Positions 3-6,946 of a DNA stretch of 64,000 bases are shown one piece after another. Under the pieces are notes generated by a model. It was not told where the DNA came from. It was given only the letters and a program-made list of their open reading frames with translations, and ran no database searches. Position 1 is the stretch's first letter, and every line of letters starts with the position of its first letter. Source of the stretch: Ichthyophthirius multifiliis (Eukaryota > Ciliophora > Oligohymenophorea > Hymenostomatida); contig NW_004086346.1 of the NCBI RefSeq assembly GCF_000220395.1, positions 27,720-91,719 on the forward strand. The letters run 5' to 3'. The translations under genes and the position numbers were made by a program.

Positions 3-572
3 GCAATAGCACATGAATATAATATTTAAGATGAATATTTAAAACCAGCAACTATGCCTTTTGTAGCAATGGCTAAAAAAGCAATTGATATAGATTGTAA
101 TATGGATTTGAGAAAAAGTTTAGAAGATTCAGTAGGTTAATTTTTTGCAAATGATACTATCTTATTTAGAGAAGATAGTGAACTTGGTGATATATAAAAT
201 AAGAGACTAAATAATGTTATTGAATATATAAATAAACTTTTAAATATCAGTTTAGAACCAACAGAAACTTTTTTCACCAAAGAGTTGTCTGAATAAGAAA
301 TATAAAAAATTAAGAAGTTTATTTAAGAATAGGATATATGGAAGTTAATATCCATATAATAGGCAACTATAAATTGCAAATCATCTTGTTTGGGTATTTC
401 GTTAATTAACAAATATATCGGAATTTAAGAATGCTTTGAACTTGCTAGACTTGAAGAAAGTTATTAAATTAATTAATATGGATTGGTAGAAGGATTCCAT
501 GATATAGATGAAAATACTTTGCGTCTTAATTTAGCTACAGCAAGACTTTTTAATGATTTAATAAATTTTTGA
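3..572 (+). CDS. ATPAF2: ATP synthase F1 assembly factor 2 (ATP12 family), 5' partial
   Basis: The 3' part of a gene entering from the left edge. ATP12 is a mitochondrial matrix chaperone that binds the F1 alpha subunit before F1 is assembled. The 189 codons present contain family landmarks in order: TMPFVAMAKKAID near the left edge, FFANDTILFRE, then the C-terminal core with ARLEESYQINQYGLVEGFHD followed by a short helix ending in NDLINF and a TGA. Many glutamines are encoded by TAA or TAG, so it only reads with the ciliate code. No intron is visible in this part. The N-terminal transit peptide and start lie outside the window. The family call is strong from the C-terminal LEExYQI..G..E..HD pattern; the gene symbol is by family, not by alignment. 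Confidence 0.85.
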
Positions 573-824: not shown

Positions 825-3800
825 TCAAAAATAATTGTAATTAGGTTATTATTATACAAATATAAATTATTTTCTTAAAGGCTCTAAATATTTGTTTTTT
901 ATTTCATCTAAAAGACTATAATCAAAATCCAATTCTTAAAAAGATTAAATTAATAGTAATTTCATAACATCAAAATGAAAATTATTTAAACTTAAATTTT
1001 AATGTGATTCTTTAATTGATTTTCCTTAATAACTATAAATAAATATAATTTAAAATAGTTTAAATTAATTTTTATTATGTACCTTTAATCTCCTTTAAAT
1101 AATGAAGTCAAATATATAATCAATGTATTTTTATGCATTTCGATATCAACACTTGCAAAATATGTGTTAATCCTTTCGTCTTTTTATATTTTTTTTATAA
1201 ATAAATCAATAGCCATATTTAAATAGAATTCTCCTCCAATCCTTTCATAAATGCTTTATTTAATTGAAACAATATTATTTCTTAAAGTTTCTAATTTTTA
1301 AGATAATTTTATTAACTAAACTTAATCAATTCCCATTTCTCTAAAAGTTTAATCTAATAAAATCTTAAAAGTATCAAACTCGCTGTCTTTAATATTTAAA
1401 CCTAAATGTTTATCGTTCATATTTTTTCTTCATAGCTTTTTTATTTAAAAAATCAATTATTTAAAAAATTTATAAGTATTTAATTACGTTTAATCTCCTA
1501 CACAAGTTTCATGTTTTAGAAAATCAAAAAACTATTGTTTATATTTTTCAGCGTCAATAAATTTAAAATATTCTTTTAACTTATTATTATTCATAATTTT
1601 TACATAAAATCTTTCAATTGCAATTTTAATATTTTAACTATCACCTAATTCTTAAAACAAGCTTAAAGTTTTCTATTCTAAACATAACTTTTTAAATGAT
1701 TAGAATATTAATAATGCTTGAGAAATATCTTAAGATTATAAATTATGTTTTAATAAACTTTAAACTATAATTTCCTATAAAACATCAAAATGATTATCTC
1801 CAAATGTAATAGTTTAATAAATTTATTTTAATTTAATTTAATCTATCTTCCTTAATTTACCAAAAAATAAATAATTTAAAAAATTGACAATAAAAGTAAA
1901 TAATAATACGTATTAGGTTGTTCAAGAACAATCTATAAAATTATTAAAATTACTTATTTCTGTTAATCATACTAAATATTTTTAAAGGAAATATTAATTC
2001 TTTAATCTTATAAAATTTCATCATAAATATATTCAACAAGCTTTTTAATCCCATTTTCTCCTCCTATTTTTTCAAAGAGAGTATTTTGTTAATTAAAATT
2101 TATTAATTAAGAGCGAGAATATTCAAAACTTTTTCCAATTTCGATAATATTCTAATAATTTACATTTAGTTCTCTTGCACTATTCATTAAGTGTGATTTT
2201 ATTATATTAAATTAGTTTTCGCTTATTAAAACATAATTATATTTTTAATATTTTTCTTCAGTAATACTATTTAATATAATAAATAAATTTAAAAATATTT
2301 TTTTATCTTACAATTGTTTTCCTTTAAAACAAACAGTTAATATTTCTTAGAAATATTGTTTTTCTTAAATAATATCTTAATTCCTGTAGAGATGAGAAAT
2401 TCGAGCATCACATAAAAATCTATCAAATGTAAGATTTACAAGTTATTCAAGAAAAGATGCTCCTCCTAATATATAGTAATTAGATTGTTAATATTAGCTA
2501 CTTTATTTTACTGTAAAAACCAAATTTTATTGGGTAATTTCAGGTTTATAAACAATACTATCCCTCAATTAATTTAAAACTTCATGAATTTCTCTAATTT
2601 TAACTTCTTAGACTTTAAATTCTCTAAAAGTATTTTAAAAAGCTTAAAGTGCTTAATCAAAATCTTAATTTGTTATCTAAAGATGTCTGTGTGTATCTTT
2701 CATGTTATTTCCAGTATAACTATAATTAATAAATTACTTTTTGTAAAAGTATATTTTTTTTTTATAAAAAAAGGAACATAAATTAATAAATACTTATTTG
2801 GACCGCCAAAAGCAAAAGCAAGAAAATTTTTTAAATTTTCTTTTAATTTTTAAATATTTACGCCTTTAAAAAATGGACATAAGGTTTAACTTCCTAAAAA
2901 TTAATCGTATATTATATCAATAATTACCTCTATTCCCATTTCTCCTCCCAAAATATCATATAAAGGCATATTTTCATGGTCATTGTTTGGTACAATCAAT
3001 TATTTTATGGAATAAAGTCTTTCTTAAATTTCTTAAATTGTATTTTAATCAACATTGACTTTAAAAAAAGCTTAACAAAGCTATTTTACAAAAATATAAA
3101 AATCGTTTAATTTTATATTAAATTATTAATGTGTTTTTTTTAAACTTCTTCCTCTAAAATTATCATAAAAAGCTATTTCCTTTTAATTTCCTTACATTTC
3201 AAATATATTTTTTAAGTATTCTGTTAATTTTAATTTCATATTCTTTAAATTAACTTAACTAAAATTTATTTTTAAAAATTCATTTTTTAATATGTTATCA
3301 TAAAATATATTCACAGCTTCCTTCAAAATATTAATTCCACCAATTTTTTCTAAAAGCGATAATTAAGAATCTAAAGGACAAGCCTAAATACTAATAAGTA
3401 GTTAAAAAATGTGATCAGTATTCACTATTATATTTGAATTACATACATTTAAATATTAAATAAATCCCAATTTATCTAATATATATATACTTTTATATCT
3501 TTAATTTTGAAATAATCCTATTGGGACTTTGAAATTTTTAAATAATTTACCTTGAGGATCTGGAAAAATACCTATACTAAACTAAGATATTCCATTTACA
3601 TTATTAAGAATTTATTTTATTATATTTAATTATTAATCAATAATAAAAATTATTTCACAGTGTCTTTCATAAAATTATTAAAATAGTTAATTATACATAA
3701 TGAATTGCTCTAAAAAGTCTTAAAAAGGGTAAAACATTAATATTAAATACCTTCCTTAATAATCTTTTAATTATTTTTAAATTAAGCTATTATTCAAATA

Positions 3801-3991
3801 GCAACTCCCTATAAATTAAGGTGCTTGTATTCCAATTTATATTTTATGTTAAACTTTTGAAAATAAATTTAATTTATTAAATATATTTGATAATTTTAAT
3901 AACTAATACATTCTTCAGTCTTTTATTATGTTTAAATTAATGTTTCTTAAGTATCTTAATATAGATAATTTGTGTTTTTACAGTTTCCCAT
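825..3991 (-). CDS. Peroxiredoxin-like domain fused to six tandem truncated hemoglobin domains
   Basis: About 950 residues. The start codon gives MGNCKNTNYL, a possible N-myristoylation/palmitoylation signal. Residues ~33-190 resemble a 2-Cys peroxiredoxin: IGIQAPQFIGS, LKDYQGRYLILMFYP, HCEIIFIID, and a late ACPLDS. The stretch after FYP is shortened and has no cysteine where the peroxidatic FxCPTE motif should be. From ~193 on, six 2/2 globin repeats of 120-140 residues start near 193, 323, 462, 590, 712 and 830, each with a LxEKIGGxxxI-type opening (LLEKIGGIN, LYDILGGEM, YILGGASF, LFEKIGGEN, LFQELGDSQ, IYERIGGEF). Repeat 2 is the most canonical: FGGPNNYTGNNMKDTHRHL with the F8 histidine. 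Repeats 1, 5 and 6 also keep a histidine at that position; 3 and 4 do not. Introns lie at about 3854-3909, 2720-2793, 1851-1909, 1436-1487 and 1024-1082; the last leaves a one-base phase problem. Truncated hemoglobins bind heme and handle O2, NO or peroxide. The role of this fusion is unknown. Confidence 0.8.
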
Positions 3992-4692
3992 TGTAATTTA
4001 AATTAAATTATTTTATTTTTATTTAAAATAATAAATTTTAATATAAAATTTTATAGTATAATTTATTGTTTTATTTTATTAGTTATTTTTAAATATTTTT
4101 AATTTAGTAAATTTATAATATTTTTATAAATTTGAGCTTTTTTATTTGATAAATAAATATTTCATTTCTTTAAAATAATATAATATTTATTTAAAAAGAA
4201 TTAGGATAAAAAAAATAGAGTAAAAAATTATTTATATATTTTTAAATAAATTTATCAATATATTTAAAAAATAATCTTATATTAATAAATATAAAATTAA
4301 TATTTTTTTTTTTACTTTTTGAATATAGAATTTTTTTAATTACATATTTTGATTTATTTTATTTTAATTTATATATTAACTAAATTTTTTCATATTTTTT
4401 TTTTTTAATTTTTATATATATTTTAATTAAGATTATTATCATTTTTATTAAAATTTTACATATTTTAATTTAGATTATTATTTTCTATTTTAAAAGATGT
4501 ATATAAATATAGTCTTATTTATTTGCTTTTATATAGAAAAATCTCTTTTGATAATAGTATCAAATACAAAAAATCAAAATTAATCAATATACTTTGTTAT
4601 ATGTAAAAAAAAAGATAATAAAAATATATTACAATATTAAATAAAAAAATTATTATATAGAAAATAAATATATATATATATAAAATAATTAA
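3992..4692. other. Divergent intergenic region, A/T-rich
   Basis: About 700 bases between two divergent genes (globin polyprotein on -, WD40 protein on +), so promoters for both should lie here. It is nearly all A/T. The minus-strand ORF at 4637-4894 is antisense to the WD40 gene start. I see no gene or defined site. Confidence 0.5.
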
Positions 4693-6946
4693 ATGTATGA
4701 TTAATCAAAAAAAAAAAAAACACAATGTTTTCTAAAATAATGTTTAAGATTAAAAACTCATTCTTATGGTTTAGGAGGAATAAGATATAATAACATAATA
4801 GTATTATCCCAAAAAATATTAATAATTCCAATAGGTTGCTCGTTAAGTATTTGGGATACTGAGAAAAGAGAAAGAATAAGTTTAATATAGTCAAATAATG
4901 ATATTATATAAGTACTTTTAAAATATTAAAATTATTTATTTTCAATATCTTATAGTGGATAAATATCTGTAATTGATATAAATAATGAATTTAATATAAT
5001 AAATGAATTATAAACTTAAGGAAGAAAAGTAAAGTATGCATCATTAACAAATTAATTCTTATGTATTTCAAAAGATGAATTCAATGAAAAAGAAGAAGGA
5101 ATAACAGAAATATTTGAAATAAAAAAGTTAATAAATCTTGCATTTAAATAAGAAGGAAATTATTATTAAATAATAGGAAGATTTGTTTATGGAACCTTAA
5201 TTTAATAGTCAAAGTTAATAATTTTTGAAGAAAAAAATTAATAAAATGATTAATCTTAAAATTTAATAAAAAATAATACTTCTTTTTCATAATTCAATAT
5301 TAAAAATATCTAATATGATATAATATAAATTGATTTAATAGAAAAGAATATAATTAAAAAATAATCTTTAAATTGTTCTGATTTCGGGAACATAATAAAT
5401 GGATGCTCTAATGGGATTAATTTTGGTGCTTTTTTAAGTATAAATAGATATTTGCTTATTTTAGAATTGTAAAATCTTCAAATAATTGCACTTTCTAAAA
5501 TATAAGGAAGCGGCTAAATATTTACCTCAAAATTCGTCGATGAAACATTATTTTTAATTCAGATAAGTTCTATTATAATGAAAATCTTTTGTTAAAAACT
5601 CTATGAAAATAATAATGAATTTCCATCACTTTTGAGCCTAAGTACTTTGAATTAAGAATTATATACAAATTGCTTTTAAATTCAAAAAATTAAATCTGAT
5701 GCTATTTCCTCATAAAATTATTTTCTAGATGTTGTCAATAATTTCATTTTTACATCTAACTTTAATACTTTTTATATTTAATGCATCGATTCATAATTTG
5801 AACCTAGTTTAATAAAAATCGAAAACTAAATTAAAATTACTTGCTCTGGTCTTGCAGTTAAACCTGATTCTTGTCTTATTGCAGTTGGAGATATGGTTGG
5901 AAATATTATTGTTTATTAAAATTAAAATAATAATCCTTCTAATGAGAAATATGCATAATTTTTTATAGCTAAAGCCGTAAGAAGCTTAGAATGGCACCCA
6001 AGAAATGATGAATTGTTTATAGGAACAATGCAAGGATAAATTTATAAATGGAATTATGAAAATAATAATTAAAAAGTAAAATAAGTTGCTTATTTTTAAG
6101 GAGGAATTACAAGTTTAAGGTTTAAATGTAATGGTTTTTATATATTTTTTTATAAATTTATTAATTATATAAAGAATCTGATAATAATTTCTATCTTTTA
6201 TCCTCTTCTACAGAAGAATAATTTGCTATTTTATTAGAAGAAGAAAATAATTACAAAATTTTAAATTTAGCTTATGCTCATCTTCCTTTAGAGTCATCAG
6301 CTTAGTTTGGTTCTTTAGGTAAAAAAACAAATCAAATTTAATAAAATAACATTATATAATAAAAAAGACAAATATTCGGAAATATGGTCAGCTGTAAAAA
6401 TCATTACTAAATAGCAACATGCAGTGAAGATTAATGTGTTAATATTTATGATTTGAGGAATAAGTAGCCTATAAAAATATAAAATATAAAAGGACATTTA
6501 TTAGCTGTTACTTGTATAGATTGGAAAGTAATTTATATTTATTATTATATCTATTTTAATTTAATTATTTTAGTAAATGAATCAATAATTAAGTGAGATT
6601 TTTATTTCTTGTTCTGATGATAAAACAGTTAAAATATATAATCCTTAGTAAAAATTTTAATTAATTCATGAATTTAATACAAATTTTGTTAATGAATGGC
6701 ACACATTAACATATTTGTCTCTTGAAAATGTAAACATAGATATTAATATTTTATATTTAAATATATAAAAATTAATAGGGTGGTACTAGAGTTGCAATTG
6801 GATATCTGTTTATTTATGATTTATTAAATTATGAATTCTAATATTGTGAAAAAATCCATATGGGAGGAATTGAAGGATTAATATGGAAAAATAATTAAAT
6901 TTTCACATGTTCTAATGATTGCTGTATAAATATAATTACTCTTTGA
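4693..6946 (+). CDS. WD40-repeat protein
   Basis: About 690 residues. The chosen ATG opens a reading frame that runs with only Gln TAA/TAG to about 6127. Two WD clusters are visible. N-terminal: CSLSIWDTEKRER and ISYSGQISVIDI. C-terminal: VRSLEWHPRNDELFIGTMQG with QIYKWN, then CDINVYD-like ICSEDQCVNIYDLR, then SCSDDKTVKIYNP and TCSNDCCINI just before TGA. The middle is a poorly conserved stretch rich in Ile, Asn and Gln. Three short introns fall near 6128-6174, 6526-6574 and 6728-6779, all in the 3' half. WD40 propellers are protein-interaction scaffolds; I cannot name a specific family. The N-terminal frame begins in an A-rich run (14 A), so a base error there could change the start. Confidence 0.75.

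What the first reader, a model, noticed from the sequence alone, without database searches (positions are those of the whole stretch)
825..3991. Peroxiredoxin-like domain fused to six tandem truncated hemoglobins in one ciliate protein
Ciliate truncated hemoglobins such as those of Paramecium and Tetrahymena are known as single ~120-residue domains. Here one minus-strand gene encodes a peroxiredoxin-like N-terminus and then six 2/2 globin repeats in a continuous reading frame joined by short introns. I know of no described protein with this layout. A peroxide- or NO-handling multi-heme protein, possibly membrane-attached through an MGNC start, is the obvious hypothesis.
Basis: partly seen in the sequence, partly recalled or inferred. 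Interest (0 to 1): 0.88.

Follow-up and report, generated by a model that had tools for sequence, protein, structure and literature searches.

The report
Ciliate peroxiredoxin-like protein with six hemoglobins
A fish-parasite ciliate has a gene whose protein joins a likely membrane-anchor start, a peroxiredoxin-shaped domain that lacks its key cysteine, and six small hemoglobin domains in a row; three more genes of this plan were found in the same genome and a relative in a Tetrahymena.

Summary
On the minus strand, 3991-825, removing seven short GT-AG introns (one uncertain) leaves a 926-codon frame under the ciliate code. It starts MGNC, then has a Prx1-type domain and six group-1 truncated-hemoglobin (trHb) domains. 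Pfam finds AhpC-TSA and five of six globins; the third is supported by a paralogue profile and a predicted 2/2 fold.

The genome is Ichthyophthirius multifiliis. Three paralogues share the MGNC + Prx + tandem trHb plan (4, 4 and 7 globins; the last has a frame break). Tetrahymena utriculariae has a 4-globin relative whose globins match two of them one-to-one in order. An intron at the equivalent place and phase in 18 of 22 globin domains points to duplication of an intron-bearing unit.

The "peroxide/NO-handling" reading is weak for this copy: the peroxidatic cysteine is missing, none of six pockets has the Tyr-Gln-Gln distal set, and two domains have Tyr for the proximal His. I favour a membrane-tethered multi-heme array on a non-catalytic Prx scaffold, acting as gas/redox sensor or relay; that function is inferred. 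Multi-domain trHbs are already in print; I saw the Prx fusion only as database entries.

The parts
825..3991 (-). whole gene, ATG 3991 to TGA ending 825; 8 exons 3991-3910, 3853-3196, 3153-2794, 2719-2312, 2266-1910, 1850-1488, 1427-1083, 1032-825; 926 aa
   Evidence: splicing and translation with code 6. A codon-usage gene finder called 5 of the 7 introns, kept 3195-3154 and 2311-2267 as coding, and added a 3' intron at 857-724 that runs the gene on to 274; I rejected that
3980..3991 (-). MGNC start, candidate N-myristoylation (Gly2) plus palmitoylation (Cys4) site
   Evidence: identical in the four Ichthyophthirius genes and in T. utriculariae P0005; the modification is inferred
3453..3836 (-). 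Prx1/AhpC-like domain (residues 34-161), peroxidatic Cys absent
   Evidence: Pfam AhpC-TSA 39.6 bits for the N-terminal piece; PDB sequence hits to 2-Cys Prx, best E 4.9e-10; model of 3851-3363 with pLDDT 89.9, best Foldseek E 6.2e-14
2991..3362 (-). globin 1 (HisF8, TyrB10, LysE10)
   Evidence: Pfam 32.9 bits; pocket residues; contains the uncertain intron 3195-3154
2548..2969 (-). globin 2 (HisF8, TyrB10), highest Pfam score of the six
   Evidence: Pfam 68.6 bits
2098..2484 (-). globin 3 (TyrF8, PheB10), diverged
   Evidence: no Bac_globin match; paralogue profile 55.2 bits against 9.1 for the best shuffle; model matches group-1 trHb structures
1673..2085 (-). globin 4 (TyrF8, TyrB10, GlnE7)
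   Evidence: Pfam 29.0 bits
1259..1672 (-). globin 5 (HisF8, TyrB10, TyrE7)
   Evidence: Pfam 28.6 bits
858..1258 (-). globin 6 (HisF8, HisE7, IleB10)
   Evidence: Pfam 35.1 bits
3854..3909 (-). intron 1, 56 nt, phase 1, before the Prx-like domain
3154..3195 (-). uncertain intron in globin 1, 42 nt, phase 2, in frame
   Evidence: set by hand; the gene finder kept it as coding
2720..2793 (-). intron in globin 2, 74 nt, phase 2
2267..2311 (-). intron in globin 3, 45 nt, phase 2, in frame
   Evidence: set by hand; the gene finder kept it as coding
1851..1909 (-). intron in globin 4, 59 nt, phase 2
1428..1487 (-). intron in globin 5, 60 nt, phase 2
1033..1082 (-). intron in globin 6, 50 nt, phase 2

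Best explanation
The gene codes a lipid-anchored multi-heme protein: a dually acylated MGNC start holds it on the cytosolic face of a membrane, a typical-2-Cys-type peroxiredoxin fold without its peroxidatic cysteine serves as a structural or oligomerising base, and six group-1 truncated hemoglobins form a heme array. Shown by sequence: domain content, family, the lost cysteine, and an intron pattern that points to unit duplication. Inferred: anchoring, oligomers, heme loading and purpose. The most likely purpose is sensing or relaying redox state or a small gas (O2, NO, peroxide) at a membrane, not enzymatic peroxide removal: the heme pockets differ from one another, and in the 4-globin sister lineage several pockets keep residues of their own between Ichthyophthirius and Tetrahymena. 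In this copy four domains (1, 2, 5, 6) keep the proximal His and should bind heme; domains 3 and 4 have Tyr there and may bind heme weakly, differently or not at all.
For: Same plan in the four multi-globin genes found in the genome (the scan gives lower bounds) and in T. utriculariae P0005. MGNC in all five. Globins g1-g4 of C471, C779 and T. utriculariae form four one-to-one groups, each with 100% ultrafast bootstrap. Kept in those three proteins: B10 Val in g1, E11 Tyr in g2, E10 Lys in g3, E10 His in g4, each 3 of 3, and F8 His 12 of 12. LysE10 is the sixth heme ligand in Chlamydomonas THB1, 2 and 4 (passage of PMC7082302). Peroxidatic position: no Cys in the window, Tyr in C49, Ser in T. 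utriculariae; C471 and C779 have Cys there but Gln at the usual Thr place. Both ordinary typical-2-Cys Prx genes of this genome that I read (L018, L020) keep FTFVCPTE and a C-terminal VCPA.
Against: No expression, heme or localisation data. Window globins 3 and 4 have lost the proximal His and have the longest end branches (1.70 and 1.53), so this copy may be decaying rather than specialised. Its domains have no well-supported one-to-one partners in the conserved 4-globin set (best: globin 5 beside the g4 group at 89/44), so conservation arguments come from its sisters. Other pocket positions of the sisters do vary (E7 in all but g3). Two sisters keep a Cys at the peroxidatic position, so the family may not be wholly non-catalytic.
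Confidence: 0.5

Rival explanations
1. A detoxifying enzyme: the Prx part reduces peroxide and the globins dioxygenate NO.
For: AhpC-TSA family match; group-1 trHb family, whose Tetrahymena member is tied to NO detoxification in the title of Igarashi 2011, seen in reference lists. Sisters C471 and C779 keep a Cys at the peroxidatic position; C49 globins 2 and 6 keep Tyr-Gln-Gln.
Against: In the window copy the peroxidatic Cys is missing and 0 of 6 globins have Tyr-Gln-Gln; 3 of the 22 Ichthyophthirius domains tabulated do.
Confidence: 0.15
2. An O2 store or carrier: tandem globins raise heme content at a membrane, as in polymeric invertebrate hemoglobins (recalled).
For: 4, 4, 6 and 7 tandem globins in the four genes; TyrB10 in four of six window domains.
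Against: Pockets are unlike each other and two lack the proximal His; a store would be expected to keep equal, good sites.
Confidence: 0.15
3. A heme buffer or heme-delivery protein: the Prx part, which keeps a Cys-Pro near its end, binds heme and passes it to the globins.
For: Cys-Pro after the Prx fold in C471, C779 and T. utriculariae and ACPL in the window. A rat Prx I structure is entitled HBP23; heme binding by HBP23 is recalled.
Against: The Cys-Pro may only be the old resolving-Cys motif (VCPA). C49 has no such Cys-Pro there, only a CPF between globins 2 and 3. No test of heme binding.
Confidence: 0.1
4. A decaying paralogue with no function.
For: Lowest AhpC-TSA score of the four (39.6 bits, and not among the ten matches of the genome scan, where the others score 105, 92.9, 73.1), lost HisF8 in two domains, long branches.
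Against: Complete 926-codon frame, GT-AG introns, MGNC kept.
Confidence: 0.08
5. Two or more separate genes, wrongly joined.
For: No RNA evidence; the gene finder differs at three introns.
Against: Same order in three other loci and in a Tetrahymena protein deposited as one polypeptide.
Confidence: 0.02

Closest known systems
Ichthyophthirius multifiliis 'protozoan cyanobacterial globin family protein, putative' (P0004, paralogue on C471)
   Same: Prx + tandem trHb plan; identical to 79% of my C471 model
   Different: four globins; the deposited model lacks the MGNC start and the first half of the Prx domain; my C471 model is 25% identical to the window protein
Tetrahymena utriculariae hypothetical protein ABPG72_015631 (P0005)
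   Same: MGNC, AhpC-TSA domain (101.4 bits), four Bac_globin stretches
   Different: four globins, one-to-one with C471/C779 and not with the window copy; Ser at the peroxidatic position
Multidomain truncated hemoglobins (Hade et al. 2017, IUBMB Life; title only, seen in reference lists) and Chlamydomonas THB5 with four consecutive 2/2Hb domains (passage)
   Same: several trHb domains on one chain, or trHb fused to another domain
   Different: whether Prx fusions or these ciliate proteins are described there is unknown to me (not held). I recall, unverified, that its abstract names ciliates for tandem group-1 units
P0001, 1343-aa protein of an unnamed ENA record (contig 1.47 Mb)
   Same: MGC start and five tandem trHb domains
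   Different: no AhpC-TSA match; C-terminal cytochrome b5; its five globins group together, so its array looks separate in origin
Tetrahymena pyriformis trHb (3aq5) and the single-domain Ichthyophthirius trHb on C322
   Same: family and fold
   Different: single domain with Tyr-Gln-Gln pocket
Typical 2-Cys peroxiredoxins (Prx1-4)
   Same: fold; TM-score by query length 0.79-0.87 in the 50 rows listed
   Different: no peroxidatic Cys in the window copy

Membership tests
Group-1 truncated hemoglobin | Bac_globin profile / 2-over-2 fold | tested here: met
   5 of 6 domains over the Pfam cut-off; 6 of 6 by paralogue profile; domain 3 by fold
Group-1 truncated hemoglobin | proximal His F8 | tested here: inconclusive
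   met in domains 1, 2, 5, 6; Tyr in 3 and 4
Group-1 truncated hemoglobin | heme binding | not testable with these tools
   needs spectroscopy
NO-dioxygenase-type ciliate trHb | distal Tyr B10, Gln E7, Gln E11 (positions from the T. pyriformis entry titles Y25F, Q46E, Q50E, and the Igarashi 2011 title) | tested here: not met
   0 of 6 window domains
Typical 2-Cys peroxiredoxin | AhpC-TSA profile and thioredoxin-like fold | tested here: met
Typical 2-Cys peroxiredoxin | peroxidatic Cys in PxxxTxxC (motif recalled; seen) | tested here: not met
   no Cys at the site
Typical 2-Cys peroxiredoxin | resolving Cys in a C-terminal VCP motif (recalled; seen) | tested here: inconclusive
   a Cys-Pro (ACPL) directly after the domain; alignment to the motif differs between alignments
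Multidomain truncated hemoglobin | two or more trHb units on one polypeptide | tested here: met
   six units in one spliced frame; no transcript seen
N-myristoylated/palmitoylated protein | MGNC start | tested here: met
   sequence and conservation only; that the motif marks acylation is recalled, acylation not tested

The most novel reading that the evidence does not exclude
A membrane-tethered 'wired' globin array: one polypeptide carrying several trHb hemes with different axial and pocket residues (in the sister lineage LysE10, HisE10 and TyrE11 each kept at its own site; in the window copy Tyr in place of HisF8 in two domains) on a pseudo-peroxiredoxin base, working as a multi-site redox or gas sensor/relay. 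I recall no precedent among hemoglobins; I made no search for one.
Probability: 0.2. Interest if true: 0.78.

Novelty: new variant of a known kind. Interest (0 to 1): 0.52.

Why it matters
It indicates that a peroxiredoxin fold and a tandem array of truncated hemoglobins were joined before Ichthyophthirius and Tetrahymena split, kept together with a likely membrane-anchor motif, and then varied (4, 4, 6, 7 globins). That gives a system, testable in Tetrahymena, for what multi-globin proteins do in single cells and for what a peroxiredoxin fold does once its catalytic cysteine is gone.

Tried and rejected
Separate genes: rejected because the same order recurs in three other loci and one deposited Tetrahymena protein. 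Chance match in a window of about 83% A+T: rejected by shuffles. Catalytic peroxiredoxin in this copy: rejected on the missing Cys. Codon-usage gene finder: useful for paralogues, but in the window gene and C471 it added a terminal intron, and it missed in-frame introns (two in the window, one each in the Prx part of C471 and C779, and it misplaced the long one in C779 globin 2); I set these by hand. The hand-set C471 Prx intron agrees with the deposited P0004. Whether 3195-3154 is an intron stays open: removing it leaves globin 1 a few residues short before helix F, keeping it adds 14. Literature: nine searches bearing on the question and one on heme-binding Prx listed no paper whose title or abstract start concerns a Prx-trHb fusion; I saw passages of PMC1457004, PMC3820574, PMC7082302 and PMC5745447, and otherwise listings only. 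Homologue searches gave P0001-P0005; P0002 (named CheA by its source) and P0003 match weakly (E 1.3e-8, 8.3e-8) and were not pursued. Searches scored only the 8000 candidates sharing most words, so absence from other ciliates (T. thermophila, Paramecium) is not shown. NCBIfam gave peroxiredoxin matches below their cut-offs only.

Full report
What is there. The minus strand between 3991 and 825 reads, under the ciliate code (TAA and TAG as Gln, TGA stop), as one gene of eight exons and 926 codons. 90 of its 103 Gln codons are TAA or TAG. The seven introns are 42-74 nt, all GT-AG. The in-frame 42-nt piece 3195-3154 is uncertain; both versions leave the frame open (926 or 940 aa). Two of the seven (3195-3154, 2311-2267) I set by hand; the other five were also called by a codon-usage gene finder.

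Domains. Pfam gives AhpC-TSA at residues 35-161 (36.3 bits; 39.6 for the N-terminal piece alone) and Bac_globin with 159.2 bits over the whole protein; five of six globins pass the family cut-off alone. Globin 3 does not, but scores 55.2 bits against a profile made only from non-window domains, where the best of 500 shuffles scores 9.1. Its model (137 residues, including the 45-nt in-frame intron; four-row alignment; mean pLDDT 76.6) has six PDB matches at E 0.001 or better, all group-1 trHbs of M. tuberculosis, C. reinhardtii or C. eugametos. The Prx-like domain is modelled at mean pLDDT 89.9; the 50 PDB matches listed are Prx structures with TM-scores by query length of 0.79-0.87.

Organism and family. 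A public protein named 'protozoan cyanobacterial globin family protein, putative [Ichthyophthirius multifiliis]' is 100% identical to the C471 paralogue over the 79% it covers and lies on a contig of the same length, 49,253 bases. I take the window to be from I. multifiliis. Scanning the 45-Mb genome with Bac_globin gave 12 matches on five contigs. The four contigs with more than one match are C49, C471, C779 and C502, which holds the window. AhpC-TSA gave 10 matches, three of them beside the globins of C49, C471 and C779; the window's own was not among the ten, but passes the cut-off. Gene models give MGNC + Prx + 4 globins (C471, 826 aa), + 4 (C779, 759 aa, linker uncertain), + 7 (C49, with a frame break in globin 4), and a single-domain trHb on C322. 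Such scans score only the best candidates, so the counts are lower bounds.

Relative. T. utriculariae P0005 (802 aa) has MGNC, AhpC-TSA at 101.4 bits and four globins. In a tree of 30 domains (C49 globin 4 left out), g1, g2, g3 and g4 of C471, C779 and T. utriculariae form four groups, each with 100% ultrafast bootstrap. So the Prx + four-globin plan most likely predates the split of the two genera. Which Ichthyophthirius copy is nearer to Tetrahymena differs between domains (g1 favours C471, g4 favours C779). The window and C49 domains fall in poorly resolved places (9 of 27 inner branches are well supported); window globins 3 and 4 are long branches.

Origin of the array. A phase-2 intron sits at the equivalent place, between the GGP loop and the F helix, in 18 of 22 Ichthyophthirius globin domains: window 6/6 (one uncertain), C779 4/4, C471 1/4, C49 6/7, C322 1/1. 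Fifteen of the 18 were called by the gene finder alone; three (window globins 1 and 3, C779 globin 2) I set by hand knowing the pattern. The shared place and phase, including in the single-domain gene, point to repeated duplication of an intron-bearing globin unit, with some losses. The five repeats of P0001 group together, so tandem trHbs seem to have arisen more than once.

Function, shown and inferred. Shown by sequence: MGNC is identical in all five proteins. The peroxidatic Cys is absent in the window copy, Tyr in C49 and Ser in T. utriculariae; C471 and C779 have a Cys there but Gln where Thr or Ser is usual. Both ordinary typical-2-Cys Prx genes read from the same genome keep the full motif; a third gene read, L027, looks like another kind of Prx (recalled). 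Proximal His is kept in 4 of 6 window domains, 19 of 22 Ichthyophthirius domains, and 12 of 12 in the one-to-one set. The Tyr-Gln-Gln distal set is in 0 of 6 window domains and 3 of 22 overall (C49 globins 2 and 6, C322). In the one-to-one set B10 Val (g1), E11 Tyr (g2), E10 Lys (g3) and E10 His (g4) are each kept 3 of 3, while other positions vary (all). LysE10 is a heme ligand in Chlamydomonas THB1, 2 and 4 (passage); HisE10 ligation in cyanobacterial GlbN is recalled. Inferred: membrane anchoring by acylation, Prx fold as scaffold or oligomer base, heme array as sensor or relay.

Comparison and novelty. Several trHb domains on one polypeptide and trHb fusions are in print as a kind (passages of PMC7082302; title of Hade et al. 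2017). The searches named in Tried and rejected listed no paper on a Prx-trHb fusion, but the most relevant paper is not held. I rate it a new variant of a known kind: six units, a peroxiredoxin fold without its catalytic Cys, and differing heme pockets, with the fusion itself visible in databases but, as far as those searches show, not discussed.

Noticed in passing
L014 (G000:C49:11000-19000), near 3363, minus strand: The seven-globin paralogue has a reading-frame break inside globin 4; mutation and assembly error could not be told apart.
   Followed up: partly
L013 (G000:C471:38500-45500), 1431 onward: The deposited Ichthyophthirius protein P0004 starts inside the Prx domain; the genome allows a longer model with an MGNC start.
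   Followed up: partly
P0001 (1343 aa, no window coordinates): A protein with an MGC start, five tandem trHb domains and a C-terminal cytochrome b5 domain, from an unnamed record; a separate tandem trHb array, possibly with its own electron-donor domain.
   Followed up: partly
L014, C49 globin 5: Cys in place of the proximal His F8.
   Followed up: no
window 3-572, plus strand: Carries the end of an ATP12 chaperone gene (48.8 bits).
   Followed up: no
window 4552-6456, plus strand: Frame with weak WD40/beta-propeller matches, all below their curated cut-offs, probably part of a WD40 gene with introns.
   Followed up: no
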